DNA of 37,799 nt from IMG/VR virus record IMGVR_UViG_3300031902_000027, positions 1 to 37,799 of that record; one strand, written 5' to 3'. Position numbers and translations under genes: made by a program. Positions within the stretch are counted from its first letter, which is position 1. The number at the start of each line of letters is the position of its first letter. This document shows positions 244-35,241 of this stretch, piece after piece. The notes below the pieces were generated by a model, which ran no database searches, was not told the origin of the DNA, and worked only from the letters and a program-made list of their open reading frames with translations. The DNA comes from a virus.

Positions 244-507
244 GTGAGTATCCAACATAAGAGCCGGCACGCACCCGACAACGATGAGCCATGGGTCTTC
301 GCGTCCCTTGGTGATTTCACATGTTCGATCTGCGCGCCGAACATGATGGAAAAGAATGACGTTGAGAGCTACGCCGATAGCATCTTTCCCGGGAAACCAT
401 GGCGCTCGATCAACAAGGCGAACTTTGGACTCGGCGGGCAAACACCTAATCCATGCAATGATGCGCCAGATAAGCGCACTCACTGGTTCATGTTTCGAGA
501 AAGCTAA
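244..507 (+). CDS. Small hypothetical protein with CxxC
   Basis: This 87-residue protein starts with GTG three bases after the preceding stop. The likely conserved core (residues 15-85) contains a CSIC pair and a later single Cys, with many aromatic residues. No family is recognised. The GTG start is favoured because the first ATG in frame would cut off the CSIC segment, although the ribosome site in front is weak, so translation probably depends on coupling to the gene before it. Confidence 0.6.
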   Translation: MSIQHKSRHAPDNDEPWVFASLGDFTCSICAPNMMEKNDVESYADSIFPGKPWRSINKANFGLGGQTPNPCNDAPDKRTHWFMFRES

Positions 508-512
508 CCGAA

Positions 513-740
513 ATGGTGGAAGAATGGCGCGTCAACTATGTCGTGCGGCCGGGCGGCCTGATGCGATGTTGTCTAGCAACGCTCTGTCGGTTCATGGAGA
601 GCGACGCAACCAAGCCTCCAGAGCAAGGCGACAAGTTGCATTGCATGTACGATCACAGTTTCACAGGCGCGATGATCTTCAGGGATGGCGCTTGGGAATG
701 GGATCAAAAGCCGGCATGGAAAGAAGGGTGGAGATCATGA
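513..740 (+). CDS. Small hypothetical protein
   Basis: A 75-residue protein with no recognised domain. It has a Cys pair (RCC) around residue 18 and aromatic-rich C-terminal segments (AMIFRDGAWEWDQK). The start is 5 bases after the previous stop, with no strong ribosome site, and its stop overlaps the next start as ATGA. It belongs to the coupled small-gene chain. A longer reading frame across 356-1009 in another phase is mostly a shadow; only its last 90 residues are real. Confidence 0.6.
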   Translation: MVEEWRVNYVVRPGGLMRCCLATLCRFMESDATKPPEQGDKLHCMYDHSFTGAMIFRDGAWEWDQKPAWKEGWRS

Positions 741-1009
741 CGCTTGGACCGCGCGCGAAAGAATTTCACGGTGTGAGCAGCGGTTGGTTCACCGATGCCA
801 GCAACAGCGACAATATCTTGATTATGACCGGTGACAGAGTGATCGGATCGATCATCCGAACGCCGACAGGCAGATGGCGCGTTGAAATTCTTTGGTCTGG
901 TCCAACCGGTGACATCACAGGCGATTTCATAGAGTACAGGATTGCGCTGGCGTTTGTTGAAGGCGTTGAGAAGACATTTGCAGCGTTCAAGGGCGGCTTC
1001 CCGCTATGA
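737..1009 (+). CDS. Small hypothetical protein
   Basis: A 90-residue protein, no recognised family. I set the start at the ATG at 737, which overlaps the previous stop as ATGA. The open frame continues upstream, but that part covers two other genes and has arginine-rich shadow composition. The chosen protein looks globular, with alternating hydrophobic beta-type segments (DNILIMTGDRVIGSIIRT) followed by a helix-like C-terminus. Its own stop overlaps the next start. Confidence 0.6.
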   Translation: MTLGPRAKEFHGVSSGWFTDASNSDNILIMTGDRVIGSIIRTPTGRWRVEILWSGPTGDITGDFIEYRIALAFVEGVEKTFAAFKGGFPL

Positions 1010-1227
1010 GATTGAGACATCGCAAGCGCCCCAATCATTTGCCACCGAACCCGGAAACACCGGAGATCGCGGCGTTGATCGCGCGGGCGCAAGAGCTGTG
1101 CGAGGGTTGCCGCACGAATTGGCGCATCCGCCATAACTGGACGCACAATCAGAGCACGATTGTCTGTACTGCCCAAAGCGTTCGCATAGCCTTGCGTGTC
1201 GTCGCCAACCGAAAGCATGCGGCATGA
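1006..1227 (+). CDS. Small basic hypothetical protein with CxxC
   Basis: A 73-residue, Arg- and His-rich protein with a CEGC pair near residue 32 and a further Cys near residue 54. Start and stop both overlap neighbours as ATGA, which supports the frame. No family is recognised. In a neighbouring frame the last third would read as a more zinc-finger-like string with extra Cys and His, so a frameshift in this gene is possible, but I cannot tell this from chance. Confidence 0.5.
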   Translation: MRLRHRKRPNHLPPNPETPEIAALIARAQELCEGCRTNWRIRHNWTHNQSTIVCTAQSVRIALRVVANRKHAA

Positions 1228-1619
1228 GCGAAATCTGGTGGATTTACTCGCCGGTCAACGGTGTGACTTGGGCCGGCTTGCGCATCGCGCATTTCGAACT
1301 GACATCAAACAGCGACACAGAGCTTGTCGTGATCTCCGGAGAATCCGATCCAAGACGGATCGGCATGCGCGTCTGGGAGGACGTCCAACGCAATGAGCAT
1401 TGGTACAAGGTCGAGCAGATTACGGTGCCGAGTCTGGCGACCGTTGTCGCGGCGGCCATCAAACAAGATTTCATAACGGAGGAAACACCGGGCACAAAGA
1501 CCTATCGTTGTCGAGTCTGCAACGATGATCGTTCTGTAAGAACACATAACCCTTTCGCGAAGTGCAACAGATGCGGATCACAGATGACCGCTATCGAAAG
1601 AATGGAGAGGCAGCAATGA
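1224..1619 (+). CDS. Hypothetical protein with C-terminal zinc ribbon
   Basis: A 131-residue protein. The first 90 residues look like a mixed alpha/beta domain (EIWWIYSPVNGVTW at the start). The C-terminus carries two CxxC pairs, CRVC near residue 94 and CNRCG near residue 113, the spacing of a rubredoxin-like or zinc-ribbon knuckle. A DNA, RNA or protein contact role is possible but not shown. Both ends overlap the neighbouring genes as ATGA, so it is translationally coupled. Confidence 0.65.
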   Translation: MSEIWWIYSPVNGVTWAGLRIAHFELTSNSDTELVVISGESDPRRIGMRVWEDVQRNEHWYKVEQITVPSLATVVAAAIKQDFITEETPGTKTYRCRVCNDDRSVRTHNPFAKCNRCGSQMTAIERMERQQ

Positions 1620-1846
1620 ATCAGCATGTGATGAACGTGATGGACACCAGCGGACACATGACGGTGACGTGGAATCCGACTGTTCCGATTGAAGTAAAGC
1701 ACGCGCGCGACACGTTCGACTCCATGGCAGAGCAGGGTTATCACGCCTTTCGGATCGAGGGAGTTGATCAGCAAGGCGCGCGGATGAAGGAATTCGACCC
1801 GACCGCTACCAAGATTATGTTGATCCCGCAACTACGCGGCGGCTGA
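1616..1846 (+). CDS. Small hypothetical phage protein (MDTSGH type)
   Basis: A 76-residue protein with the opening MDTSGHMTVTWNP at residue 9 and a later PTATKIMLIPQLRGG end. From memory, proteins with this pattern (MDTSGH..TVxWxP, central A-x-x-x-F) recur in phages and prophages of rhizobia and relatives, beside a protein like the next one; their role is unknown. The ATG at 1616 overlaps the previous stop, so the longer frame from 1562 is not used. Confidence 0.7.
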   Translation: MNQHVMNVMDTSGHMTVTWNPTVPIEVKHARDTFDSMAEQGYHAFRIEGVDQQGARMKEFDPTATKIMLIPQLRGG

Positions 1847-1852
1847 TCTCTG

Positions 1853-2443
1853 ATGCCGATCCTGATTCCGAATACATGGGTTTGGACCACCAGCCAAGTT
1901 GCAACGACGACATCGGCGACGACTACGATTTATTGGCTGGCGGCCAACTCGACGGCGACAACGGCATGGTACACGCCGACAACTATCGGAACCAACCCGT
2001 GGCCGGTGTACTGGTTTGGTGATGATCAGGAAATGCAACAGCGGGTCGAACGAAGGCTGGAGACGAACGCGCGATGGCGACAGCGACAGCTCGAAGTCGC
2101 TGCGCCGGCTATCATTCGACACCGGATCGATGACACCGCGAAACAGCGCGCGCGCGAGTTACTACTTGAACACCTGACACCAGAGCAACGGACCATGTTT
2201 GAATTGCAAGGTTGGTTCATCGTATGGGGCGGGAGAACAAAAACCAAATATCGAATCCGTGGCAATCGCGAAAGCGTCGTCGGGAACGTCGATGTCATGA
2301 GCGATGATAGAGTGACCCATCGTTTGTGCGGCCATTGCGCGCCAGATCAAGTGCCGTTCGGAGATCAACTCCTAGCGCAAAAACTCATGATCGAATTGGA
2401 CGAGCACGAATTTTTACGAATCGCAAACAGGCATCCGGCATGA
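1853..2443 (+). CDS. Conserved hypothetical phage protein
   Basis: A 196-residue protein. The N-terminal 55 residues are Thr/Trp rich and low-complexity. Residues 60-100 form a charged helix. Residues 105-196 read as a conserved domain: LTPEQRTMF, a beta strand pair ending in KTKYRIRG, an RLCGHC pair near residue 158, and LLAQKLMIELDEHEFLRIAN at the end. I remember this C-terminal pattern from rhizobial phage proteins of unknown function, often next to the MDTSGH protein as here. The RLCGHC segment may bind metal. Confidence 0.75.
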   Translation: MPILIPNTWVWTTSQVATTTSATTTIYWLAANSTATTAWYTPTTIGTNPWPVYWFGDDQEMQQRVERRLETNARWRQRQLEVAAPAIIRHRIDDTAKQRARELLLEHLTPEQRTMFELQGWFIVWGGRTKTKYRIRGNRESVVGNVDVMSDDRVTHRLCGHCAPDQVPFGDQLLAQKLMIELDEHEFLRIANRHPA

Positions 2444-2697
2444 CCCAAGATGACGAGATAGAGCAGCAGTATGTCGACCAGATGCGCAAACTCGCGTCGA
2501 TCATTGATGCATACTTCAATGGTCCTAAAAAGGGCAAGCAGAGAAAGACAGCGTTCGTTTTGCTCATCGCTCCATTCGGAGACACCGATGGTCGTGTCAA
2601 CTACGTCTCGAATGGCGACCGGAAAGACGTTACCACGATGATGCGTGAGGTTATTGCGAGATTCGAGGGGCAAGCGGAGATGAAGGGCCGGGCATGA
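2440..2697 (+). CDS. Small conserved hypothetical phage protein
   Basis: An 85-residue protein: an N-terminal helix (QYVDQMRKLASIIDAYFNG), then KTAFVLLIAPFGDTDGRVNYVSN, then a helix ending in RFEGQ. This layout recurs in small proteins of alphaproteobacterial phages (from memory), with unknown role. The ATG at 2440 overlaps the previous stop as ATGA; the frame upstream to 2326 is a shadow of the preceding gene. Confidence 0.7.
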   Translation: MTQDDEIEQQYVDQMRKLASIIDAYFNGPKKGKQRKTAFVLLIAPFGDTDGRVNYVSNGDRKDVTTMMREVIARFEGQAEMKGRA

Positions 2698-2726
2698 GTT
2701 ACATCATTCGCCAGATTCCGGATTGA
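2694..2726 (+). other. Ten-codon mini-ORF (coupling leader or remnant)
   Basis: The ATG at 2694 overlaps the stop of the preceding gene as ATGA and opens only ten codons (MSYIIRQIPD) before TGA, which ends 4 bases before the next gene's ATG at 2731. It may keep ribosomes on the message between two genes, or be the remnant of a deleted gene. Nothing supports a functional peptide. Confidence 0.3.
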
Positions 2727-2730
2727 TCCA

Positions 2731-3342
2731 ATGACCACGATCCCGATCCCCGAACGTATGCGCCATCTCAACGTTGATGCGCGCGGCTATGCGATTCCGT
2801 ACGGCGTTGTGATCGACACCAGCGGCACCGTGCATTTCGCCATGAACGACGAACGTATTCGACAGGAGTCGATCAAGCGCGACCTGTGCTCGCTGTGCGG
2901 CAAGCGGTTGTTGCGTGGTCGCTGGTTCGTCGGTGGTTCGCTATCGGCATTCCACCCGAACGGCGCATTCATCGACCCGCCGATGCACTATGAATGCAGT
3001 CACTATGCGCTGCAGGCGTGCCCGTATCTCGCCGCGCCGCACTACGTCAGAGAGATCGGCCCGCAAAAAGCAAAGCAGGCGCAAGAAAATTTACGGAAGG
3101 CTGGAATTATTGCGGTGACGATTGACACCACCATGATGCCCGGCCGCCCGCATGGAGAGATTTTCATCGCGATCTGCTCGGCTGGTCAGACCGTCTTTCG
3201 CAACATGAACACGCGGCCTAAACTGCCGTTCATTGCACTGGAGTATTGGAAGCATGGCCGGATGATCGAGCGGTTGACCGGCCCGGCACTGTCGCGGCGA
3301 TTGCCGAAAGAGTCAGAGGCGGCGATGGAGAATGCGGGATGA
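2731..3342 (+). CDS. Hypothetical protein with Cys-rich zinc site
   Basis: A 203-residue protein, the largest of the plus-strand cluster. A CSLCGK pair near residue 53 and Cys residues near 89 and 97 (HYECSHYALQACPY) could form a Cys4 or Cys3His zinc site. An alpha/beta region follows. I have a vague memory of similar proteins in rhizobial phages but cannot name a family. Its stop overlaps the next start as ATGA. Confidence 0.7.
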   Translation: MTTIPIPERMRHLNVDARGYAIPYGVVIDTSGTVHFAMNDERIRQESIKRDLCSLCGKRLLRGRWFVGGSLSAFHPNGAFIDPPMHYECSHYALQACPYLAAPHYVREIGPQKAKQAQENLRKAGIIAVTIDTTMMPGRPHGEIFIAICSAGQTVFRNMNTRPKLPFIALEYWKHGRMIERLTGPALSRRLPKESEAAMENAG

Positions 3343-3620
3343 CGCCGGCAGAGATCGGACAGATACATGCAAGGATGCAGGATATTACCAAGGCCGGTCG
3401 CCTGTCGATGTGGACGGTGTACGACCACCCCACAGACTTCCCGAATTGCTACGTCGCGCGTCTGTTCGATGTCAGTGGCAAGGGCATAGACCCGACATCG
3501 ACCGTCGTCATATCCGACGACCTTGAGAAAATTCGTCACGTCATGGAGGTTGATCTTCAACTAGCGTGCCTTCGGCGGCAAGCCGGCGACGACGCCAAGA
3601 TCGTGGAGACATGGGTATGA
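3339..3620 (+). CDS. Small hypothetical protein
   Basis: A 93-residue protein of unknown function. The central segment LSMWTVYDHPTDFPNCYVARLF followed by a DLEKIRHVME helix is a pattern I associate with small phage or rhizobial proteins that have no assigned role. ATGA overlaps on both sides fix the frame and start (3339); the open frame upstream to 3246 is a shadow. Confidence 0.65.
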   Translation: MTPAEIGQIHARMQDITKAGRLSMWTVYDHPTDFPNCYVARLFDVSGKGIDPTSTVVISDDLEKIRHVMEVDLQLACLRRQAGDDAKIVETWV

Positions 3621-3850
3621 CATGCGCCTATTGCCAATCATGGTCGGCGACGACCGAACGTCAACTTGCTACTCGTTTTCGAAACATGGCGGCCTCGCCG
3701 GACGCGACGCCTTTCCCGTGTCCGCAATGCGGCGGGACCGATTGGGCAACGACGCGAGAGCATATCTTGCCACCGTTGCCGGCGAATTTTTTTGATCGAG
3801 GCACGCATGCGGCGTGGCGTTTTCTGCGAAGTCTCGGACGGCGGCCATGA
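3617..3850 (+). CDS. Small zinc-ribbon-like protein
   Basis: A 77-residue protein with two Cys pairs, CAYC at residues 3-6 and CPQC near residue 35, followed by a basic C-terminus. The spacing fits a treble-clef or zinc ribbon. It could contact nucleic acid or a host protein; no family is assigned. Start overlaps the previous stop as ATGA. Confidence 0.6.
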   Translation: MTCAYCQSWSATTERQLATRFRNMAASPDATPFPCPQCGGTDWATTREHILPPLPANFFDRGTHAAWRFLRSLGRRP

Positions 3851-3860
3851 GGATCGTCAA

Positions 3861-4226
3861 ATGAAACTCAGAATCGAACCGCACCCTGAAGAATATACAG
3901 AAGACAAAGCCGCGATGTTAATGGATGAAGAAACTGACAAGCTCATCTTGATTGGTTGCGAAGGCGCGCTTGCGACGGCGACCAACATCATGAACGCCAT
4001 CAACAACATCGAAGGCTATGAGGAAGCGCTGCAGCAAATCGCGCAATGGTCGAACGCGTACCCGACGACGGTGTTTCCAGAACCTGATTTAGACAAGGCG
4101 CGGATGTTGCTGGAGGCCGGCGGGATCACACTCGACAGCATCAGCGCTCATTGTATGCGACACGTCATCAAGGGCGTTGGCGATATCGCCAAGAATGTAC
4201 TCGGAGGTCAGCGATGGATAAAGTGA
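3861..4226 (+). CDS. Hypothetical acidic helical protein
   Basis: A 121-residue protein. The ATG at 3861 is preceded by GAGGA at about 3850; a five-codon ORF from 3847 (MRIVK) ends across this start as ATGA, so re-initiation is likely. The protein is acidic at the N-terminus and mainly helical, with no recognised motif. Its last codons overlap the start of the regulator gene by 13 bases. The much longer frame to 3666 is rejected as a shadow of the gene before. Confidence 0.6.
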   Translation: MKLRIEPHPEEYTEDKAAMLMDEETDKLILIGCEGALATATNIMNAINNIEGYEEALQQIAQWSNAYPTTVFPEPDLDKARMLLEAGGITLDSISAHCMRHVIKGVGDIAKNVLGGQRWIK

Positions 4227-4555
4227 GTGCACTAAGACTTCAAGTTGACGAACGTTATTTAGGTCGGATACTTCGCGACCTCGACAAGTTATCCGGTGTC
4301 ACTAGAATCGTATTGCCAAGCTTAAAAAAACTTTCGACTGAACCGGCGCGTAGAATAGTGCCGCCCGATCTGCAGATAAATGATCTAATCCGACGTGAAC
4401 GCGGACTCTCTGCGAAAATTGCAGCGATCTGCAATCTCTCGACAGCAGCCGTGTGGATGTGGAAGCGAGTCCCTGCGAAACATGTCAATGCAGTATCAAG
4501 AGTCTTGGGCATTCCGCGCGAAAGAATTAGGCCTGATCTGTATTTGGTTGACTGA
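4214..4555 (+). CDS. YdaS/Cro-like helix-turn-helix regulator
   Basis: A 113-residue putative DNA-binding protein. Residues 1-40 form an alpha/beta-like segment (LRLQVDERYLGRIL). Residues 55-110 match the Cro/YdaS pattern: LSAKIAAICNLSTAAVWMWK is the helix-turn-helix, followed by VPAKHVNAVSRVLGIPRERIRPDLY, the usual C-terminal signature of this family. A strong ribosome site GGAGGT lies at 4203-4208. In this family the protein acts as a repressor or lytic switch; its targets here are unknown, but the folded region and the TCGA-rich region just downstream are candidates. The N-terminal 40 residues are an addition to the usual short YdaS form. Confidence 0.75.
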   Translation: MDKVSALRLQVDERYLGRILRDLDKLSGVTRIVLPSLKKLSTEPARRIVPPDLQINDLIRRERGLSAKIAAICNLSTAAVWMWKRVPAKHVNAVSRVLGIPRERIRPDLYLVD

Positions 4556-4557
4556 AA

Positions 4558-4770
4558 TTCCCGGTCTCGTCTTTTGGCAGCTCCCCGCTGCCATTGGCCC
4601 CCCAAGCGAAGCGGGACCGGAATGGGGCGGCGGTGTTCGGTTGATCCAGCCCAAGACTGACACCGCCGTTTCAAATTCGAGGCTCTAGGCCGTTTGGTGT
4701 GGACACGGCCAAGAGGGGACGGCGGTGCTGACGGGGTAGTCGTCCGGGAAAGCACCGCCGTTTCTAAATG
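4558..4770 (+). ncRNA. Candidate structured RNA: tandem hairpin units
   Basis: This 231-base gap has no gene but is packed with inverted repeats. Unit 1 has an outer stem at 4628-4636 with 4660-4668 (CGGCGGTGT/ACACCGCCG) and an inner stem GGTTG/CAGCC. Unit 2 has an outer stem at 4720-4729 with 4751-4760 (CGGCGGTGCT/AGCACCGCCG) and an inner stem GACG/CGTC. Both are followed by CGTTTC and an A-rich stretch. The T-A pair of unit 1 is a C-G pair in unit 2, a compensatory change. Further hairpins lie at 4576-4592 (GGCAGC/GCTGCC), 4561-4566 with 4615-4620, and 4688-4693 with 4705-4710. It could be an mRNA leader, a small RNA or a mobile palindromic repeat. No T tract, so an ordinary terminator is unlikely. 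Strand is assumed from the neighbours. Confidence 0.45.
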
Positions 4771-4786
4771 CAGGGAGGTCAGAAAC

Positions 4787-4996
4787 ATGATTGTCAAAGT
4801 TCAAATGCCAATCGCAACAAATGCGTCATTCAAACCTGCGCTGGTCTATGCCAAGGGTCGGATCGGCTTACAGCAACAGATATTGACTGAAGAAACGTTA
4901 CGCGCGTTGAATGGCGATCTGAAAGGATTCTTCGAAGCCCGTCACGACGGCAAGCAATGGATCATCGGCAAACGCGTTGACGCTAAAGGCTGGTAG
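4787..4996 (+). CDS. Small conserved hypothetical protein (MIVKVQ type)
   Basis: A 69-residue protein starting MIVKVQMPIATN and ending in a GKRVDAKGW motif. Small proteins with this MIVKVQ opening are common in alphaproteobacteria and their phages (from memory), role unknown. A strong ribosome site (GGGAGGT at about 4772-4778) supports the start. It follows directly after hairpin unit 2, so its translation may be controlled by that structure. The frame upstream to 4694 runs through the hairpin and is rejected. Confidence 0.7.
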   Translation: MIVKVQMPIATNASFKPALVYAKGRIGLQQQILTEETLRALNGDLKGFFEARHDGKQWIIGKRVDAKGW

Positions 4997-5203
4997 GCCA
5001 TTCCATTTCGAGTTGCGTAGTTAGCTCGATCACTAAAAGCAGAATCTGAAATTATTTTCTTCAATGATTGCGGTCGAGATCGACAGCTAAGTCATTGACG
5101 ACTCCAGCTCGCTCAGCAGTTGCATGGCCACACGTGTTACAGTTAGTTGTCGAGCGGGAATCATCCAACTCGACGGGCTGTTTGAAATTGTGGAGAACAA
5201 CGA
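4997..5203 (+). promoter_or_regulatory. Non-coding region with clustered TCGA palindromes
   Basis: No convincing gene lies in these 207 bases. The tetranucleotide TCGA occurs six times (5008, 5026, 5074, 5080, 5150, 5170), where about one is expected. They sit in small dyads: TCGAG at 5008-5012 with CTCGA at 5025-5029, GTCGA-GA-TCGAC at 5073-5084, and GTCGAG near 5149 with CTCGAC near 5169. This looks like an operator array or a folded leader for the following two genes. A TTGACG at 5095-5100 could be a -35 box but has no good -10 partner. Confidence 0.35.
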
Positions 5204-5509
5204 ATGACGAAGAGCACAACTACGCGTGCGAACGCCGCGCTTGTTGCTGACATGGCCAACAATCCTGATGATCCGTTAAAGTGGTTCATCGCAATTGGAA
5301 ATAACAATGGTTGGGGTCGTAGTGCCAAGTCGGAAGCGGAAGCCGTTGCCAACATGAACAAGAACGGGCACGGCAAGGCGAAAGAATATTTCGTCTATAA
5401 GTGCACGGAGAAAACGACGGTCAACGATATGGGCGGGTTCACTCGTCCGATGGGAGACCCGGAACCAATGAAGATTGCGCACGTGGGAGGAAAGAAGATA
5501 GCGCCATGA
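5204..5509 (+). CDS. Hypothetical protein
   Basis: A 101-residue hydrophilic protein with a GNNNGWGRSAKSEAEAVANMNKNG middle segment and no recognised domain. The ATG at 5204 follows GGAGA at a good distance. The stop overlaps the next start as ATGA, so the two genes form a small unit after the TCGA-rich region. Confidence 0.65.
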   Translation: MTKSTTTRANAALVADMANNPDDPLKWFIAIGNNNGWGRSAKSEAEAVANMNKNGHGKAKEYFVYKCTEKTTVNDMGGFTRPMGDPEPMKIAHVGGKKIAP

Positions 5510-5775
5510 AAAACGAACACACATTCAACCTTGGTGACCGTGTGACGATCTTCCAAATGTCCCCATCGAAAGGCCTGATCATCGAGGGCATGGCCGCTAT
5601 CGTCGAAATCATGGACATGGATGAAAGATACATTGTCCGGTTCGATAACGACGTGGACCAATACGACAAAGTCAGCGACGTGCCAACCTACGAACGGTTC
5701 GTCGATGTCCAAGGACAGGCCGATCCGGAAACCTACGTGAGGACCATCAACAACATTATCGCGAAAGGTCTTTGA
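5506..5775 (+). CDS. Hypothetical protein, possible beta-barrel fold
   Basis: An 89-residue protein. FNLGDRVTIFQ near residue 7, EGMAAIVEIMD and ERYIVRFDND are strand-like segments resembling a small KOW/SH3-type barrel, as in many small phage proteins, but no family is assigned. It is the last plus-strand gene; its stop lies 12 bases before the shared terminator. Confidence 0.65.
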   Translation: MKNEHTFNLGDRVTIFQMSPSKGLIIEGMAAIVEIMDMDERYIVRFDNDVDQYDKVSDVPTYERFVDVQGQADPETYVRTINNIIAKGL

Positions 5776-5787
5776 GACTCCAAACGC

Positions 5788-5825
5788 AAAAAAGCCCCGT
5801 TGCCAAATCGGCAACGGGGCGTTTT
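5788..5825. terminator. Bidirectional Rho-independent terminator
   Basis: GCCCCGTTGCC at 5794-5804 pairs perfectly with GGCAACGGGGC at 5810-5820 around a 5-base loop. On the minus strand the stem is followed by six T (A run at 5788-5793); on the plus strand by GTTTTC. It lies between convergent genes, so it can end both the plus-strand cluster and the minus-strand late transcript. Confidence 0.9.
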
Positions 5826-5841
5826 CATATCAGCGTTTCGG

Positions 5842-6273
5842 TTAGTTGACGAAGGTGCCCCGGATCGGGACGCCGGAAACCTTGGGCACAGTTGACGTCC
5901 CGCTGTACTTGTTCGAAACAACCCAGCCGTCGACCAGTACGCCAGTCACCATGCCGCTGCGGAAGTTACCGCGATGAAGCGGGCCACTCGACAAGACCGG
6001 TGCCGGCGCAATCGCCGAACAGATCGCGTTCGAAATCGCGGTCGCGGTGACGACACCGGGATTGCCGGCCGAAATGATGTTGGCGATGGTGGTCGCGGTC
6101 GGGACGAACTTGCACGCCGTGGTGCAGGCGGCCTGCACGGCAGCGATGACATCCGCCATCGTCGGCGCTCCAGAGGTGACGGCACCCGTGACCGGGTCAG
6201 TGGTCGTGACGCAGCCCGCCAGCGTGGAGGATGCAAGCGCGACAGCGATGGCGAGGCTTCGAATGATCTTCAT
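5842..6273 (-). CDS. Putative phage lipoprotein
   Basis: A 143-residue protein with a classic lipoprotein signal peptide: a positive start, a hydrophobic stretch and lipobox LAGC with Cys21 as the lipidation site. The mature part has an Ala/Thr-rich helical region with three more Cys (about residues 50-85) and a C-terminal beta-rich GVLVDGWVVSNKYSG segment. It is the last gene of the late block, after the lysis genes, so it may act at the outer membrane (outer spanin-like or superinfection-related), but it is longer than usual outer spanins and no spanin partner is proven. AAGGAG lies upstream of the ATG. Confidence 0.7.
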   Translation of the reverse strand: MKIIRSLAIAVALASSTLAGCVTTTDPVTGAVTSGAPTMADVIAAVQAACTTACKFVPTATTIANIISAGNPGVVTATAISNAICSAIAPAPVLSSGPLHRGNFRSGMVTGVLVDGWVVSNKYSGTSTVPKVSGVPIRGTFVN

Positions 6274-7754: not shown

Positions 7755-8633
7755 TTAGCGGGCACCAGCGGCCGGATTTGCGCTCTTGAAACGGCCCAGC
7801 GCCGCGCCAAGGGCAGGCTTCGCCGCCAGAACGGCCGCCGCCGAGCCTGCGGCCTTCGTCTGTGCGTCGCTGGCGGCTTGCGCCAGTGTCGTATCCCCCG
7901 GGGAAGCCGCCGCCGCAGAGACCGCCGTAGCGGCAACAGCCGCGTCCGCGTCTGCCGTGGCCTGCAGCGCCACCAGATCGACAGTGACCAGCGGAGCTGC
8001 AGCGAGCGCCGCCGCTGCGGCATTCGACTTTGCGAGGGCATCGGCCGCCGCAGACGCCAGACCCGCATCAGCGGGCGCGGCTAGGGCTGCAGCGGTGGCC
8101 GCATTCGACGCCATGAGGGCATCGGCCGCCGCCGTGGTCAGGCCCGGGTCAGGAACCTGAGTCACGGGCGTCGGAGTCGGGTTTGGCGTGGGAGTCGGGT
8201 TTGGCGTCGGGGTCGGGGTCACGACACCAGCCGGAATCGCCGTGGTCAGCTTGGCAATCGCCGCCTTGAGATTGGCGGTGCCAGCAACCAGCGCGGCCTT
8301 GTCTTCGGCATCAACCGGAGCATCGGCCGGGATCGCGGCGATCTGTGCCTGCAGATCGGTGACCTTAGACGATAGCAGCCCGAGTGCAGCAACCGCCGAA
8401 TCGGTCGCGGAAGTGTTGAGGGCGATTGCATCAATCGCGTCTTGTACGTCTTGGTCGAGAGCCATGAGTTTGTCCTTTAACGTTTGGATGGTCGGGTCCA
8501 ACGCATCGAAGCGCTGATTGATGATCGCCGCTAGGTCGGTTAGTCGGTCGAGTTCATCGGCGGCGAGCGCGATGAGTTCGTCCGTATTCTCGGCCGCACG
8601 CGCGCGGAGTGCATCACTCATTGCGTGAGTCAT
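7755..8633 (-). CDS. Ala-rich coiled protein with Pro-Thr linker
   Basis: A 292-residue low-complexity protein. Residues 1-140 are helical with heptad-like spacing (ENTDELIALAADELDRLTDL and later segments). Residues about 155-175 form a Pro-Thr-Asn repeat linker (PTPTPN units). The C-terminal 115 residues are alternating Ala-rich helices with imperfect repeats such as AAADALMASNAA and AAADALAKSNAA. No signal peptide or catalytic motif. I start at the ATG at 8633; the open frame further up overlaps the preceding gene. The shape suggests a fibrous or spacer protein, perhaps virion-associated, next to another coiled-coil protein; this is inference. Confidence 0.65.
   Translation of the reverse strand: MTHAMSDALRARAAENTDELIALAADELDRLTDLAAIINQRFDALDPTIQTLKDKLMALDQDVQDAIDAIALNTSATDSAVAALGLLSSKVTDLQAQIAAIPADAPVDAEDKAALVAGTANLKAAIAKLTTAIPAGVVTPTPTPNPTPTPNPTPTPVTQVPDPGLTTAAADALMASNAATAAALAAPADAGLASAAADALAKSNAAAAALAAAPLVTVDLVALQATADADAAVAATAVSAAAASPGDTTLAQAASDAQTKAAGSAAAVLAAKPALGAALGRFKSANPAAGAR
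8170..8220. repeat. 18-bp tandem repeat (PTPTPN linker)
   Basis: Nearly identical 18-base units read on the plus strand as GTCGGAGTCGGGTTTGGC and encode the repeated Pro-Thr-Pro-Thr-Pro-Asn linker of the Ala-rich protein. Such repeats can change copy number by slippage without shifting the frame. Confidence 0.7.
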
Positions 8634-29034: not shown

Positions 29035-30645
29035 TCAAGCGCCGACGTTCTTGTAGACGCCACGGAAGTCGATGGCACCGACACCGAAATCGTGCTCAAG
29101 GCTGATCTTGATGCCCTGCACACCGAACGGTTCGAATGTACGCGTGCGCGGGCCGCTCGATCCATTCAGGAAGCCATAGATGAAGTTCGGCACACGCGTC
29201 GGTTCGGTCAGCATGTACCAAGCGTTGCCCGTGATATTCGAGTCAGTCACGGGCACCAGCTTGCCAGAGAACGGATTGACCGACGTCGTGAGGTTCGGAG
29301 TGATCGTGGTCAGAATCTGGTCGGCGGCCGTTTCAGTAACCGGACCAGTAAGCAGGATGCGCGGCGGGACATTGATGAGCAGACCGGTCAAAGACCGCAT
29401 CTGCCGCAACATCATGCGGCCTTCAGAGATCGAGGGGACGGTGATCGCAGCGGCGGTGCCGAGATTGGCATGCGACGCATCGAACACGGGCTTGTTGTCG
29501 GTCTTCAACACCGGGTTGGAGTTGAACATCGCAAAGAACGTGTTGTTCTCGAAGATCAACACGCTATCGCCAGCGGAGGCGAGAATGTTGTCGATGGCAC
29601 CGAGATCATCATTGACCAGCATCTGACGAGAGATGCTGAACACGACGCCATAGGGCGAGACAGACACGGTCTCACCGCTGTCTGCAGACGACCCATATTT
29701 CAGCTCGCCGGTTTCCGGTACAGGCTGCAGCGCCGGAAACTCGCCGGCCCTGATCTGCGGATGCGGACGGAAATCGGAGAACGGTCGTTCAACAGCGAGC
29801 TGCCGATAGGTCGGCAACGTCAACTCATAGCGCGACAACAGCGACTTGTTGAGCGCGTTGGAAAAGATCGCCGGGAAATCACTGGTCGAGTGAAACGCCC
29901 GTTCGAAAATCGTGTTCGCGTCAGCGGAGGTCAGATAACCCCGCCCGCGATAGCCAATGCAGGCGGCGGCGAGATCGACCAGACCCATGCCAAGATACTG
30001 CTCAGCCTGTTTGCGATGCTGGTCAGCGAACCGCTTGTCGCGAAGGCCCTTCGGATCGTAGGCAATCGACTCGCGACCGCGCGATGCCAGCAGCCGGGTA
30101 ATAAGCGCGACTTCCATCGCGCCGGCAACGCCCTCCTGCTCATCGCGTGTGACCTGAAGCCCGGTTGCAGTGCCACGTGGCCCCCGCGCATCGGACTTCT
30201 TGGCCAGCTCGGCGAACAAGCGTTTGCGCATGTCGTCGGGCTTCTCGCCGCGCGTGATTGCGTCGGAAAGAGCAAGCTCAATGCCCAGACCGCGCGCCTG
30301 ACTATCAATCAGGACAAGCTCGGCAACGACCGAACGTGACAGCACGCTATTGCCAGCGCGAGCGTCCGCGCGCGCCTGCATGCGCTTGGCCTTCTCTTCA
30401 TCGGTCTCATCCTCATCGTCGGCAGGATCAACCGGGTCGGTGCCGCTGGCGCGCTCTTTCTCAGTCGCACATGCGCGCGTGATCTCGACATCAAGTGCGC
30501 GGATGTCCTCCAAGAGCTTGGCGTGATCCTCTTCGATCTTGCGCGAAGCGTCGGCATCAAGACCATCAACGATTTCGGCCAGCTTGGAGCGAGCGGCAAG
30601 TTCAAGACGCGCCTTCTCGGCACGCAGTTGCTTGGCGGTTTTCAT
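29035..30645 (-). CDS. Major capsid protein (HK97 fold)
   Basis: A 536-residue protein. Residues 1-100 are a charged helical delta/scaffold domain (KQLRAEKARLELAARSKL) that is probably removed by the protease. The mature part begins after a linker near residue 160 and contains DFPAIFSNALNKSLLSRYELTLPTYRQLA, SGETVSVSPYGVVFSISRQMLVNDDLGAID and LLINVPPRILLTGP, as in gpT-like HK97-fold capsid proteins. It ends with DFGVGAIDFRGVYKN. A GAGGAATT ribosome site precedes the ATG. It is flanked by terminator hairpins on both sides. Confidence 0.92.
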   Translation of the reverse strand: MKTAKQLRAEKARLELAARSKLAEIVDGLDADASRKIEEDHAKLLEDIRALDVEITRACATEKERASGTDPVDPADDEDETDEEKAKRMQARADARAGNSVLSRSVVAELVLIDSQARGLGIELALSDAITRGEKPDDMRKRLFAELAKKSDARGPRGTATGLQVTRDEQEGVAGAMEVALITRLLASRGRESIAYDPKGLRDKRFADQHRKQAEQYLGMGLVDLAAACIGYRGRGYLTSADANTIFERAFHSTSDFPAIFSNALNKSLLSRYELTLPTYRQLAVERPFSDFRPHPQIRAGEFPALQPVPETGELKYGSSADSGETVSVSPYGVVFSISRQMLVNDDLGAIDNILASAGDSVLIFENNTFFAMFNSNPVLKTDNKPVFDASHANLGTAAAITVPSISEGRMMLRQMRSLTGLLINVPPRILLTGPVTETAADQILTTITPNLTTSVNPFSGKLVPVTDSNITGNAWYMLTEPTRVPNFIYGFLNGSSGPRTRTFEPFGVQGIKISLEHDFGVGAIDFRGVYKNVGA

Positions 30646-30694
30646 CTTACAAATTCCTCATGAATGCGCCCGGCCCAAGGGCTCGATGGGCAAT

Positions 30695-30724
30695 AAAAAA
30701 CCCGGCGCGCGAATGCGAGCCGGG
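30695..30724 (-). terminator. Rho-independent terminator between protease and capsid
   Basis: On the minus strand CCCGGC pairs with GCCGGG around a 12-base interior with three more pairs, directly followed by TTTTTT (A run 30695-30700). It lies 27 bases after the protease stop and 50 bases before the capsid start. Confidence 0.88.
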
Positions 30725-30750
30725 CCGGGACGAGTAGAAGTTAAGTTGAA

Positions 30751-31500
30751 TTAGGCTTGCGACATCCGGTCACTGATGGTCTGCCGTGCCTGCATGCGGG
30801 CGCGTACATCAATCAGGTTGGGCTTTGCTTGCCGAAGGTCCGGATAGTCGTAGGAGATTGAGCAGTCGCCGAAACGTTTGGTGATCCGGATTGCACCATG
30901 GCGCAGCTCATCAACTTGCGGGAGGGCGCGATCAACGCCTGACCCGAACGAACGAATACCGGAAAGAGAGTCAGCCGGCACCGAGCACAGCGACCCCTCA
31001 TGAAGCGCCCACCGCGTTGCGGTGAAAGTCAAATTGTCTTCCCAGCGAATTTGCGAATTGTCGGGATCAAGTACCTTGCCTTCAGCGTCGCTGATTTCCC
31101 ATTCGCGGACTTGATAGCCTGCGGAAATTCCCGCGATCTCGCCGCGCTCGACCATACCTTCAGCAAGTTGACCGTTCGGAGTCTGGTTGAAAATGATGCG
31201 GCCCATCAGCGCGCCGCGCTTGATCCACGTATCACTGAAGCGCCCAAGAGCATTGGCGATCCCGCCAGACTGGTGAGAGTCGAGCAGCGGGATCATGCTG
31301 CCATTCTTCATACGCTCAAGGTCAACCGACTTATCATCGATCCGCAAAACTTCCGTGCCATAGAAACGCACGACAGGCGAACCCATGGAGATCACGCATT
31401 CGACGGAATGGGCTTTCTTGTCGTAGCTCGACGGCGATACATCGGCGAAGCGCGTATCGGTTGCGCCGGCATTCCAGCCGCGTGGTCTAGCGTTAGCCAT
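30751..31500 (-). CDS. Prohead protease (HK97 type)
   Basis: A 249-residue serine protease of the HK97 prohead family. MIPLLDSHQSGGIANALGRF holds the conserved His (near residue 95), and GEIAGISAGYQVREW holds the catalytic Ser (near residue 130). WALHEGSLCSVPADSL follows. It cuts the scaffold part of the capsid protein during maturation. In relatives the protease and capsid may be fused; here they are separate. Confidence 0.88.
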   Translation of the reverse strand: MANARPRGWNAGATDTRFADVSPSSYDKKAHSVECVISMGSPVVRFYGTEVLRIDDKSVDLERMKNGSMIPLLDSHQSGGIANALGRFSDTWIKRGALMGRIIFNQTPNGQLAEGMVERGEIAGISAGYQVREWEISDAEGKVLDPDNSQIRWEDNLTFTATRWALHEGSLCSVPADSLSGIRSFGSGVDRALPQVDELRHGAIRITKRFGDCSISYDYPDLRQAKPNLIDVRARMQARQTISDRMSQA

Positions 31501-31531
31501 GATGGTGATCTCCGTGGCATTTCAAGCCCTG

Positions 31532-31550
31532 AGCACCTATATTGAGTGCT
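31532..31550 (+). promoter_or_regulatory. Operator-like dyad over a TATATT box
   Basis: AGCAC and GTGCT form a dyad with a 9-base spacer, and the spacer contains TATATT (31538-31543), a fair -10 box on the plus strand. No good -35 box is visible at 17 bases. It lies 44 bases before the plus-strand ORF at 31594 and 31 bases before the protease on the other strand, so a repressor could control either gene. Confidence 0.35.
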
Positions 31551-31593: not shown

Positions 31594-31794
31594 ATGCAGG
31601 TTAATTATGGATCGTTTGAGTCGTTTCCGGCTCGGTTTACGCTTTATGAGGCGTGGGTTCTGATCAATGGCGCTTGGAAGACCATGAACGCCGCAGAGGT
31701 CAACAACTCGGCCGCCCTGTTGAGCATGGCAGAGTTTGAAAAGTTCGGTCAGCTACCAGACTTGCCGGCTGCAGCTTTCCACTCTGGCGAATAA
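31594..31794 (+). CDS. Opposite-strand small ORF, candidate immunity or moron gene
   Basis: A 66-residue ORF, the only plus-strand gene inside the 32-kb minus-strand late block. It fills a 248-base gap between the protease and the GNAT-RelA/SpoT gene, and its last 46 bases overlap the end of that gene tail to tail. AAGGG lies 7 bases before the ATG. The product (MQVNYGSFESFPARFTLYEA, then WVLINGAWKTMNAAEV) is acidic and aromatic, like a folded protein, but no family is recognised. Position and orientation suggest expression from a prophage, and thus an antitoxin or exclusion factor. That is inference. The GTG start at 31546 is less likely. Confidence 0.55.
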   Translation: MQVNYGSFESFPARFTLYEAWVLINGAWKTMNAAEVNNSAALLSMAEFEKFGQLPDLPAAAFHSGE

Positions 31795-33323
31795 GCTTCA
31801 CTGACTGCACCGTACAGCGCGCGCATCTGCGCAATCAATTCATCAGCCCGAGTCTTTTCGATTGGATTAGTTGGATCGAGCGCGCGCCACTCGACATAAA
31901 GCCCGTGACCATTTCCGCCCTTGTCAGACTTCGCGTTCGACATTTCCGGACTCATAAACTGAATCTCTCCGATCATGCCGTTATCGAATTTGACCAGCGC
32001 GGCGCGATCCATGTACCCGAGATTCGTTGTGCGCCAATTCTCCAGCGTCACCTCGAAATGTTTTGCAAGCTCCGCAGCGATAGCGTCGCTCTGTTTCGGA
32101 TCGGTCACGATGAAAGCGCCACGCACGACATCGGTGACTGCAGAGGCCTTGCCGCCACGGTCGGCCATTTTCGTCGCGACGCGATCAATCCCTCTTTGAC
32201 TTTTGGTCTTGACGCCCGGGTCTTTGAATTCGACTCCAAGTGTCGTCGCGATCTGGCGACCGACAGACCCGAGTTGCGATTGTGCGGCCGGCGCTGAAGC
32301 AATGAGATCATCGACCGTTGCGTGAGGTGACGACTCAATCCAACTGGTCTTTGTCGCGGAGATCGCGGCGTGATCATCGACCGCCTTGAGACCCGGAGAA
32401 TATTCGCCGCCTGTCACAACAGCAGCAGCGGCTTCATCATAACTCGGATACATCTTGCCATCGCCAGCCTTGTAAGGCTTCGCGGCAGGATCGTATTTCA
32501 TGAAAACGACGTCGGGCTTGCCGCCGTTGAATTTGCCGAACAGCTCTTTATCCCAGCCGGGCGGCTGATACTGTTCATCGAAGGCGGTACGCGAAACGGC
32601 GGTGAAATGATTATTGCCGTACAGGACTGGCAAGACCGTATCAAAGCAGTCGAGTTTTCGGCCGCCCTCTTGAACCGCAAGTGGCAAGACCGCGTCCACA
32701 ATGTTTGCGTGTTCGGAATCGGAATGCTTGAACAGGGAAACGATGTCGTCGCCCTTGAGCGCAAATCCGACATCGCCATCAGGAGTCACGAACAACCTGA
32801 CATGCTCATAATCCTCGACGGGATAGAGCGTGACAGCCGCGCCGTACTTGCTGGAGCCCTTGGCTTCGTCAATCAGACGATGGAAAACAGTAGCGCCGGC
32901 CTTGTTGTTAACCAACTCGTTAAAGGTGAGAGGGGTTGCGGCGTGCTCGGTGAGAGCCGCCTGATGTTCTTCGGTCGGCGTGAAGACGCGCCGAATCGAC
33001 GCGCCGCTTAGCCGCCTAGCTCCTTGATCATTTCCCGGGCTTCGTCCGGAGTAAGTTGCGGGTACGCTTCCAGAACCCCCGCTAGATGGCGTGAGTCCTT
33101 TTCCGCTTCCGGCTTCTTTTCCGGTGTCTTTTCCGCCGCTTGATCCGCCGGTACTTCCGCCATCGCCGCCACCTCCATCACCGCCGCCGCCACCATCACC
33201 GGACCATTTGCCATCATCGTCGCGCGGCTGGTCAGGGTCCCATTCGCGATATAGGCCATTGCGCGCAAGGATGCCAGCCCCGGGGACCCGCTCAACGATC
33301 CAGTCTCGCGGGAGGGCAGGCAT
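31749..33323 (-). CDS. Virion-cargo-like protein with GNAT-like and RelA/SpoT-like domains
   Basis: A 524-residue multidomain protein placed between portal and protease, where MuF-type minor head proteins lie. Residues 33-40 hold PRDDDGKW, a motif I recall from many phage head-associated proteins. A Gly/Ser/Asp-rich linker (42-105) follows. Residues 160-279 resemble a GNAT-fold domain known from phage MuF-type proteins, with GGRKLDCFDTVLPVLYGNNHF and GGKPDVVFMKYDP. Residues 349-484 resemble a RelA/SpoT-type nucleotidyltransferase: VKTKSQRGIDRVATK, TDVVRGAFIV (Asp398), NLGYMD (Tyr437), GMIGEIQFMSPEM (Glu453, Gln455) and HGLYVEWR. In polymorphic toxins this domain makes toxic alarmones or modifies RNA. 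The start at 33323 overlaps the portal stop as TGATG. Activity is not shown. Confidence 0.7.
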   Translation of the reverse strand: MPALPRDWIVERVPGAGILARNGLYREWDPDQPRDDDGKWSGDGGGGGDGGGGDGGSTGGSSGGKDTGKEAGSGKGLTPSSGGSGSVPATYSGRSPGNDQGARRLSGASIRRVFTPTEEHQAALTEHAATPLTFNELVNNKAGATVFHRLIDEAKGSSKYGAAVTLYPVEDYEHVRLFVTPDGDVGFALKGDDIVSLFKHSDSEHANIVDAVLPLAVQEGGRKLDCFDTVLPVLYGNNHFTAVSRTAFDEQYQPPGWDKELFGKFNGGKPDVVFMKYDPAAKPYKAGDGKMYPSYDEAAAAVVTGGEYSPGLKAVDDHAAISATKTSWIESSPHATVDDLIASAPAAQSQLGSVGRQIATTLGVEFKDPGVKTKSQRGIDRVATKMADRGGKASAVTDVVRGAFIVTDPKQSDAIAAELAKHFEVTLENWRTTNLGYMDRAALVKFDNGMIGEIQFMSPEMSNAKSDKGGNGHGLYVEWRALDPTNPIEKTRADELIAQMRALYGAVSEAYSPEWKAAAGKSGS

Positions 33324-34984
33324 CACGAATCCTTTTCGTCAGCAGCGTCCTGAGCGTCGTCCGCGTCGTCCTGAGCGTCCTGAGTGTCGAGCGCTGCCAT
33401 GTGTGCCGCGTGCGCTTGGGCCGGGTCTGGAGCGTTCGGATCGGCGGCAACCGGTGCCCCAGCCGCTGGAGCGGCTGGAGGCGGGCGGCCTCTCTGGTCG
33501 GTCTTGCGCGGGTCGATATCCGCCACCAGACCGTTGGCATCCTGCAGCTCATTCCACGCCTTGATATCCTTGGCGATGGTGCGCCAGTTGTTGCCCTTGC
33601 TGGCGATGAATTGCTGCGGCGAGATGCGGCCGGCGCGAACCTCGTTGCGCTCGGCATCCAAATCCTTTTTCGGGTCGATAGCCTCATGCGCGGGCGTGAC
33701 CCACTCGCAAGGATAACCGCCCTTGCGAGCCGGCAGGTAGTTAGCGAGGATCGCGCGCGCAATGAAGCGATCCCAAACCGGTTGGCAGAGCTGCGGAATG
33801 ATCGTCAGCTCTTGCTGCTGTGTGATCAGTCGCCAGAATTCAATCTTGCCGGCGCGCAATGACGAGTAGTTGGCTTGCCGCAGATCACCAGCGATCTGGT
33901 CATAGGTGCAACCGACACCCGCCGCCATGCCCATCAAATTATAAAGCAGTACCGGTTCGATCTGCGATGTACTGGTCGGATTCGCGAACTTGATATCCTG
34001 ACCGGCGCGCAATTCTTTCATCATGCCCGGTTCAAGCATCGAAACCATCGCATCTGGATTCGACGCGTCGTATGGTTGAGCATAACCAGAGTTTGCTTCA
34101 TCCAGAATCGGAGCGTTCGCATCATCGTTGGTAATGAACGCCGCGAAACACGCCTCGACGCGCGCCTTGACATTGGCGGCATCGATAAAATCGGAAAGGT
34201 CGCGCGCCGTTGTCAAGATCGGTGCGAACCAAGGAACGCCGCGAACCTGTCCCGGCCGCTGCATCTTGAAGACGTGCATGAGATCGGAGTAGGGAATCAA
34301 CTCGGAAGTCATGGGCTTCAGGTTCATCGTTGTCAGCTCGCCCGGATGATAGGGCCACAGCCACAAGCCAACGACCTTGTCATAGTCACCGAGCGCCACA
34401 CCCAAACGAGATCGGACAACCGATTCTGGCGTAGCGATATCGCCATAAATGCCATCGCGATACTGATCGATAAAATCGGCTTCAAGTAGTTGGACCTGAA
34501 ACGGCACAATCCGTTTCGTCATGCCCGGCTTTTCTTCGAGCGGTCGATCAACCAAGCGCGCAACGATCTCGCCAGACTCGATCATCGAACGAACGGCAAG
34601 ACCCTGCATTGCACGGAACGACAGGCGACCAGTCACGTCGGCTTGATTATCCCAATCTTCCCAGAGGTCTTGAACCTGTGCATCGATCTTGTCTTTCCCC
34701 GTCGATGAAATCGGGATCAGACCATTACCGACCAGATGCGCCACCATGACATCAAGCAGGCGCGCGGCATGTGGCGTGTTGCGCGCGAGATCGCGCGAGC
34801 GATCACGCAACGGTCGGATAGCAGATTGCAATTCTGCATTGGAGCTGGTGCCCAGCGCGCGCCATGACGACGCGCGCCGGCCAGCAGTGGCCCCCTCGTA
34901 AATACGAATCGCACTACGCGCGCGCACGCGTGCTAATCCACGCTCCGGAGCGAAGTAGGAGACAACCCTATCGAGTACATTCAT
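33323..34984 (-). CDS. Portal protein (lambda gpB family)
   Basis: A 553-residue portal. It opens MNVLDRVVSYFAPERGLARVRAR. SAIRPLRDRSRDLARNTPHAARLLDVMVAHLVGNGL, then EADFIDQ and MHVFKMQRPGQVRGVPWFAPIL, then YSSLRAGKIEFWRLITQQQ are the gpB-family blocks. The C-terminus is Ala/Asp/Pro-rich. Twelve copies form the ring through which DNA enters. I use the ATG at 34984; the frame begins with a TTG at 34996. Confidence 0.92.
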   Translation of the reverse strand: MNVLDRVVSYFAPERGLARVRARSAIRIYEGATAGRRASSWRALGTSSNAELQSAIRPLRDRSRDLARNTPHAARLLDVMVAHLVGNGLIPISSTGKDKIDAQVQDLWEDWDNQADVTGRLSFRAMQGLAVRSMIESGEIVARLVDRPLEEKPGMTKRIVPFQVQLLEADFIDQYRDGIYGDIATPESVVRSRLGVALGDYDKVVGLWLWPYHPGELTTMNLKPMTSELIPYSDLMHVFKMQRPGQVRGVPWFAPILTTARDLSDFIDAANVKARVEACFAAFITNDDANAPILDEANSGYAQPYDASNPDAMVSMLEPGMMKELRAGQDIKFANPTSTSQIEPVLLYNLMGMAAGVGCTYDQIAGDLRQANYSSLRAGKIEFWRLITQQQELTIIPQLCQPVWDRFIARAILANYLPARKGGYPCEWVTPAHEAIDPKKDLDAERNEVRAGRISPQQFIASKGNNWRTIAKDIKAWNELQDANGLVADIDPRKTDQRGRPPPAAPAAGAPVAADPNAPDPAQAHAAHMAALDTQDAQDDADDAQDAADEKDS

Positions 34985-34992
34985 CGACGGGA

Positions 34993-35241
34993 TCAATAAC
35001 CGGAGATCAAAGTATCGTCCGCAGCCTCATTACCGCCGATGAATCCACGATCATGAGCAGCAAGAATGGTCGATGAGCGACGCGGAGTGACACCAAGATC
35101 GTCACCCATCTTGTTCAACAGGAACAAGAGATCAGCCAGCGACCTGTTCGACACCGACTTGCCATCATACGAAACGGATTGAGCGCCCGATGCGATGATC
35201 GCAAGCAAGTCTTCGTACTGACGAAGTGTGAAAACCGACAT
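34993..35241 (-). CDS. gpW-like head-tail joining protein
   Basis: An 82-residue protein. LRQYEDLLAIIASGAQSVSYDGKSVSNRSLADLLFLLNKMGDDLG is the gpW layout (helix, beta hairpin, helix). In lambda gpW joins the connector and tail, and its gene also lies between the terminase and the portal. The start at 35241 is 10 bases after the terminase stop; the frame upstream to 35469 is a shadow of the terminase. Confidence 0.82.
   Translation of the reverse strand: MSVFTLRQYEDLLAIIASGAQSVSYDGKSVSNRSLADLLFLLNKMGDDLGVTPRRSSTILAAHDRGFIGGNEAADDTLISGY

What the first reader, a model, noticed from the sequence alone, without database searches (positions are those of the whole stretch)
31749..33323. Phage head-region protein fusing a GNAT-like and a RelA/SpoT-like domain
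Seen: after PRDDDGKW and a Gly-rich linker, residues 160-279 match the GNAT-like pattern of MuF-type phage proteins, and residues 349-484 carry the RelA/SpoT synthetase skeleton (KS...K, D-V-V-R-G, GY, E-I-Q, H-x-L-Y). Known: RelA/SpoT-like domains occur as toxin domains in polymorphic toxins and toxSAS systems, and MuF proteins of temperate phages can carry toxin domains. Inferred: the protein is packed into the head and delivered with DNA, where it could make (p)ppGpp- or pApp-like alarmones or pyrophosphorylate tRNA, stopping host growth or competing phages.
Basis: partly seen in the sequence, partly recalled or inferred. Interest (0 to 1): 0.85.

Follow-up and report, generated by a model that had tools for sequence, protein, structure and literature searches.

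The report
Phage head-operon alarmone-synthetase toxin with GNAT-like domain
A phage carries, between its portal and protease genes, a protein whose tail end closely resembles bacterial toxins that stop cells by making alarm nucleotides; such phage-borne toxins are already known, but this one lacks the usual capsid (MuF) part and instead carries a domain typical of proteins that phages are thought to inject with their DNA.

Summary
The 525-aa ORF at 31749-33326(-) lies in a lambda-type head operon between portal and prohead protease. Its C-terminal part (about residues 336-511) is a RelA/SpoT-type pyrophosphokinase domain. The only significant PDB sequence match is Tas1/Apk1, the T6SS (p)ppApp-synthetase effector (E 2e-9). 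The predicted fold (pLDDT 87) matches Tas1 at Z 14.8, and the catalytic skeleton is intact. Residues about 132-281 form a GNAT-like fold (Z 10.5) without the acetyl-CoA loop. This domain recurs in giant phage polyvalent proteins and in a minor capsid protein. No MuF domain is present, so it is not a MuF toxin by definition. MuF-fused (p)ppApp synthetases (Apk2) and RelA/SpoT or GNAT domains in polyvalent proteins are already published: a new variant of a known kind. In a small tree the domain groups with a Novosphingobium effector encoded beside T6SS genes and with a phage polyvalent protein. Checked relatives of the phage lack such a gene between portal and protease/capsid, so it looks like an inserted accessory. 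A small convergent ORF (31594-31794, +) is an immunity candidate by position only; sequence tests did not support it. Virion packaging, injection, product and lysogeny were not shown.

The parts
31749..33326 (-). 525-aa accessory protein: N-terminal peptide, Gly-rich linker, GNAT-like domain, RelA/SpoT-type synthetase domain; its GTG start overlaps the portal stop by 4 nt
33201..33248 (-). YREWDPDQPRDDDGKW peptide (residues 27-42 region); similar peptides (KYSEDQARDDHGRF) separate the modules of an 1884-aa phage protein in L023
   Evidence: function unknown
33027..33200 (-). Gly/Ser-rich linker, residues about 43-100
32484..32933 (-). GNAT-like domain, residues about 132-281; conserved DGDIVSVF and GGxKLDCFDTVLP; no Q/RxxGxG/A loop
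31794..32321 (-). RelA/SpoT-type pyrophosphokinase domain, residues about 336-511; K373, D399, R402, Y438, E454, Q456, H474, Y477
31594..31794 (+). Small convergent ORF (66 aa from ATG; 82 aa from GTG at 31546) overlapping the 3' end of the toxin gene by 46 nt; candidate immunity gene by position only
   Evidence: homology to other candidate immunity ORFs not supported
31514..31543 (+). Weak sigma-70-like match just upstream of the small ORF (chance not excluded: 2 found, 1.1 expected)
33323..34996 (-). Portal protein, lambda family (neighbour)
   Evidence: PF05136 E 1e-93
30751..31500 (-). Prohead protease (neighbour)
29035..30645 (-). Major capsid protein (neighbour)

Best explanation
An accessory effector of a tailed phage. 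It is made with the head proteins and most likely packed in the virion, then enters the next cell with the DNA. There its C-terminal domain moves pyrophosphate from ATP to the 3'-OH of an adenine (or guanine) nucleotide. The alarmone made, and the ATP spent, halt host metabolism. The GNAT-like domain is a common passenger of phage polyvalent proteins; it may modify or bind a host protein, or target the protein to the capsid. Shown here: domain class, fold, intact catalytic skeleton, operon position, insertion relative to checked related phages, and kinship with an effector encoded beside T6SS genes and with a phage polyvalent protein. Inferred: packaging, injection, toxicity, which nucleotide is made, and the role of the GNAT domain.
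For: Tas1 is the only significant PDB sequence hit. Fold Z 14.8 to Tas1, the highest of all RSH chains though only about 1-1.5 above the small alarmone synthetases. Catalytic residues conserved. The tree groups the domain with a Novosphingobium effector encoded next to ClpV/TssG/TssF-like genes and with a phage polyvalent protein carrying Phage_lysozyme2 and ddrB-ParB, support 96/94. The GNAT domain occurs in giant phage polyvalent proteins and as the C-terminus of a VG15-type minor capsid protein. BFVD holds the same fold in phage proteins named ART-PolyVal-like and DdrB-like. Related phages have no gene between portal and protease/capsid, or only a small head-completion gene. Literature: PMC5512222 (GNAT and RelA/SpoT domains in polyvalent proteins, RelA/SpoT-MuF fusions), PMC12226406 (Apk2 MuF toxins make only (p)ppApp and are toxic in E. 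coli).
Against: No virion data; no packaging signal identified; no MuF domain. The nucleotide-specificity positions do not match the published Apk2 signature: syn3 is GYMDRA rather than GxN type, and syn4 is EIQFM rather than YH type (PMC12226406), so the product is open. The small ORF could not be shown to be an immunity gene. No lysogeny genes were recognised. Only one virus carries this exact protein; two further contigs are 99.99-100% identical.
Confidence: 0.55

Rival explanations
1. Polymorphic toxin against competing bacteria, or against rivals of the lysogen, with its own immunity gene: the small convergent ORF at 31594-31794 protects the phage-carrying cell, as IapK does for Apk2.
For: The gap after the toxin gene is 248 nt, larger than its neighbours' gaps, and holds a small convergent ORF with a plausible ribosome-binding site. 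The Novosphingobium effector (L005), the L011 phage domain and two remnant loci also carry a small convergent or antisense ORF at the same end. Two of these ORFs are homologous to each other: 45% identity with most changes at third codon positions.
Against: Leave-one-out profile search does not recover the window ORF; pairwise tests are weak or null. No HD-type (p)ppApp hydrolase was recognised in the ORFs scanned. No sign that the phage is temperate.
Confidence: 0.3
2. Cytoplasmic late-infection or superinfection-exclusion enzyme that is made but not packaged, comparable in use to the phage PhRel or CapRel systems.
For: RSH-type toxins encoded by phages or prophages act inside the producing cell in other systems (PhRel and CapRel, cited in PMC12691689 and PMC9712102).
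Against: Translational overlap with the portal gene points to late head-operon expression; fusion to a domain of phage polyvalent proteins; fold closer to Tas1 than to CapRel or FaRel2.
Confidence: 0.2
3. Catalytically dead or purely structural head protein.
For: The GNAT domain lacks the canonical acetyl-CoA loop.
Against: All RSH catalytic positions are kept in a fast-diverging domain; checked related phages do without this gene.
Confidence: 0.07

Closest known systems
Tas1/Apk1 (T6SS PAAR effector, (p)ppApp synthetase; PDB 6ox6)
   Same: Homologous synthetase domain, 31% identity over 164 structurally aligned residues; same catalytic skeleton
   Different: No PAAR domain; phage head operon; differs at syn3 and syn4 specificity positions; PAAR-linked Tas1-like relatives form a separate branch in the tree
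Apk2 (MuF-fused phage (p)ppApp synthetase; PMC12226406)
   Same: Phage/prophage head-region protein ending in an alarmone-synthetase domain
   Different: No MuF domain; GNAT-like domain instead; no Aph1-type hydrolase recognised nearby; syn motifs differ
Polyvalent proteins with GNAT or RelA/SpoT domains (PMC5512222; L011, L016-L025)
   Same: Same GNAT domain (about 40-50% identity) and, in L011, the same RSH subgroup
   Different: 525 aa and two domains rather than 1000-3000 aa; sits between portal and protease
Exported alarmone synthetases, RelV/VpEAS and SaEAS (PMC12691689)
   Same: Homologous domain; RelV-like relatives found at E 1e-12 to 1e-18 with a profile that includes the window domain
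   Different: Those carry Sec signals; no signal peptide is evident here

Membership tests
RelA/SpoT-type synthetase (RSH/SAS) | Synthetase fold | tested here: met
   Foldseek E 1.6e-9 to Tas1, E below 1e-3 to SAS1, SAS2 and Rel; VIA Z 13-15
RelA/SpoT-type synthetase (RSH/SAS) | Catalytic skeleton K, D..R, GY, ExQ, HxxY | tested here: met
   H474 is present in the window but missing in L011
RelA/SpoT-type synthetase (RSH/SAS) | Match to the Pfam RelA_SpoT profile (a database criterion, not a biochemical one) | tested here: not met
   no Pfam hit; divergence from the profile, as the fold and the Tas1 match show
RelA/SpoT-type synthetase (RSH/SAS) | Pyrophosphokinase activity | not testable with these tools
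   needs a nucleotide assay
MuF polymorphic toxin (Apk2) | N-terminal MuF domain | tested here: not met
   no MuF hit in Pfam, NCBIfam or PHROGs
MuF polymorphic toxin (Apk2) | Head-gene neighbourhood | tested here: met
   between portal and protease
MuF polymorphic toxin (Apk2) | Adjacent immunity gene(s) | tested here: inconclusive
   small convergent ORF present, homology not supported
Polyvalent protein | Several effector domains in one phage polypeptide, shared with large polyvalent proteins | tested here: met
   GNAT and RSH domains, each found in giant phage proteins
Polyvalent protein | Delivered in the virion | not testable with these tools
   needs virion proteomics
GNAT acetyltransferase | GNAT fold | tested here: met
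   VIA Z 10.5, 132 aligned, rmsd 2.9; Foldseek alone is weak, best E 4e-3
GNAT acetyltransferase | Q/RxxGxG/A acetyl-CoA loop | tested here: not met
   variable loop KHSDSEHAN in the window, no consensus in homologues (read from the alignment)

The most novel reading that the evidence does not exclude
A class of phage-delivered polymorphic toxin without MuF: a small two-domain protein inserted behind the portal gene, carrying a swappable T6SS-type alarmone toxin and a tail-to-tail immunity gene, so that the toxin-immunity cassette moves between T6SS effectors, polyvalent proteins and head operons as one unit.
Probability: 0.2. Interest if true: 0.7.

Novelty: new variant of a known kind. Interest (0 to 1): 0.45.

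Why it matters
It suggests that capsid-linked alarmone toxins are not limited to MuF fusions and that one subgroup of the Tas1-like domain is shared by a bacterial effector next to T6SS genes, a phage polyvalent protein and a lambda-type head operon. It also gives a short two-domain protein in which the open question of whether such phage toxins are really carried in the virion could be tested.

Tried and rejected
Immunity by homology: the small ORFs beside the window, L005 and L011 domains looked alike by eye; shuffle tests and leave-one-out HMMs did not support this for the window ORF or the L011 ORF. Only the L049 and L058 ORFs are clearly homologous, and the L005 ORF ranks first in its locus at a weak E 0.08. 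Search for further carriers of the full architecture: viral contigs gave only two near-identical copies of the same virus. Phage and plasmid collections gave no convincing match to the synthetase domain. Close relatives of portal or protease in viral contigs: only the same virus, so variability of the slot could not be surveyed. A joint alignment of GNAT and RSH relatives misaligned the RSH rows, so the domains were modelled apart. In a first tree one row was out of frame; it was removed. A search with the N-terminal peptide gave only chance-level hits.

Full report
What is there. The ORF at 31749-33326 on the minus strand encodes 525 aa. It overlaps the end of a lambda-family portal gene by 4 nt (33323-34996) and is followed by a prohead protease (30751-31500), a major capsid protein (29035-30645) and a decoration protein. 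The window is a virus record of 37.8 kb. Two other IMG/VR contigs carry the same virus at 99.99-100% identity.

C-terminal domain. Pfam, NCBIfam, PADLOC and PHROGs gave no RelA/SpoT hit. A phmmer search of the PDB gave one significant match, Tas1, at E 7.9e-8 for the whole protein and 2e-9 for residues 325-525. An AlphaFold2 model of residues 325-525 from a three-sequence alignment has mean pLDDT 86.7. Foldseek ranks Tas1 first (E 1.6e-9), followed by small alarmone synthetases and Rel. VIA-align gives Z 14.8 for Tas1, 12-14 for SAS enzymes and SaEAS, 11.1 for CapRel and 7.3-7.4 for FaRel2. K373, D399, R402, Y438, E454, Q456 and Y477 are invariant in an alignment with RelV-like, PAAR-linked and other relatives, and H474 is present. 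The enzyme class is therefore well supported; the activity itself is not shown.

Relatives of the domain. A scan of 84,980 species genomes found one relative through exact peptide patterns: a 579-aa Novosphingobium protein beside ClpV-, TssG- and TssF-like genes (these names are read from the sequences, not from a profile search), i.e. a probable T6SS effector. A viral scan found the domain in a 1271-aa phage protein that also has Phage_lysozyme2 and ddrB-ParB domains. Sampling 398 Pseudomonadota genomes gave mainly RelV-like proteins of about 258 aa and one PAAR-linked, Tas1-like protein. A Sphingomonadales PAAR-linked relative sits next to an HD-domain protein, the arrangement expected for a (p)ppApp hydrolase immunity. 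In a ten-sequence tree the window domain groups with the Novosphingobium and phage polyvalent domains (96/94), apart from the PAAR and RelV-like groups. The tree is small and its long branches call for caution.

GNAT-like domain. Residues about 132-281 match phrog_2563 and align at about 40-50% identity with a domain in giant phage polyvalent proteins. It also forms the C-terminus of a Microbacterium phage minor capsid protein of the VG15 family and occurs in a 3125-aa Limnohabitans phage protein with LPD22 and ART domains. The model (pLDDT 74) matches GNAT enzymes at Z up to 10.5, RimI among them, though Foldseek alone is weak. The acetyl-CoA loop consensus is missing, so acetyltransferase activity is doubtful. 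DGDIVSVF and KLDCFDTVLP are nearly invariant, so the domain is under constraint.

Context. In Roseobacter phage CRP-811 and Bordetella phage PBb002 the portal gene is followed directly by the protease/capsid gene; in Paracoccus phage Pyei1 only a small head-completion gene lies between. Match coordinates in Microcystis and Rhodobacter phages leave no room for such a gene either. The gene thus looks like an accessory insertion. No integrase or repressor was recognised among the ORFs scanned; whether the phage is temperate is unknown.

Candidate immunity gene. The 248-nt gap after the toxin gene holds a convergent ORF (ATG at 31594, stop ending at 31794) with a plausible ribosome-binding site and a weak promoter-like match. 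The Novosphingobium locus, the L011 phage locus and two remnants in other genomes carry small convergent or antisense ORFs at the same end. I tested whether these are one family. Two are clearly homologous (L049, L058); the Novosphingobium ORF is borderline; the window ORF and the L011 ORF are not recovered. The position is suggestive; homology is not claimed for the window ORF.

Comparison with the literature. MuF proteins with RelA-like toxin domains were predicted in 2017 (PMC5576092). Their (p)ppApp synthetase activity, toxicity and immunity proteins have since been measured (PMC12226406). RelA/SpoT and GNAT domains in polyvalent proteins, and RelA/SpoT-MuF fusions, are described in PMC5512222. 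Exported alarmone synthetases across secretion systems are catalogued in PMC12691689. The window protein lacks MuF, so it is not an Apk2 by definition. It combines two domains already known separately in polyvalent proteins, in a short protein in a lambda-type head operon; I did not find this combination in the papers read, which is not proof of absence. The product cannot be read from sequence: syn2 (DVVRGA) has the arginine position shared by Apk and RelV-like enzymes, while syn3 (GYMDRA) and syn4 (EIQFM) fit neither the adenosine nor the guanosine signature given in PMC12226406.

Verdict. Observation confirmed, interpretation partly supported, new variant of a known kind.

Noticed in passing
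L023:609-6263 (+): 1884-aa phage protein in which the peptide KYSEDQARD[DY]HGRF (four times) or KYSEDQARV.AG...GGQF (twice) separates successive domain modules, similar to the PRDDDGKW peptide of the window protein; possibly a processing or packaging signal.
   Followed up: partly
L011:2202-6017 (+) and 5486-5818 (-): Phage polyvalent protein with lysozyme, ParB-like and RSH domains; a protein-like ORF runs antisense inside its 3' region.
   Followed up: partly
L049:3807-4013 (-) and L058 around 7777-7986 (+): Two Alphaproteobacteria carry remnants of an RSH toxin with a homologous intact small antisense ORF (45% identity), possibly orphan immunity genes.
   Followed up: partly
L010:653-2691 (-): Sphingomonadales PAAR-linked Tas1-like protein followed by an HD-domain protein, probably an Apk1 plus Aph1-like pair.
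   Followed up: partly
window 29035-31500: Prohead protease and capsid are separate genes, whereas relatives such as Rhodobacter and Paracoccus phages are annotated with a fused protease-capsid protein.
   Followed up: no
window 37799 and L001 base 1: The window and another contig of the same virus end at the same base, 78 nt beyond the terminase small subunit gene, which may be a physical genome end.
   Followed up: no
window 356-6273: About 6 kb of ORFs without any Pfam or PHROG match.
   Followed up: partly
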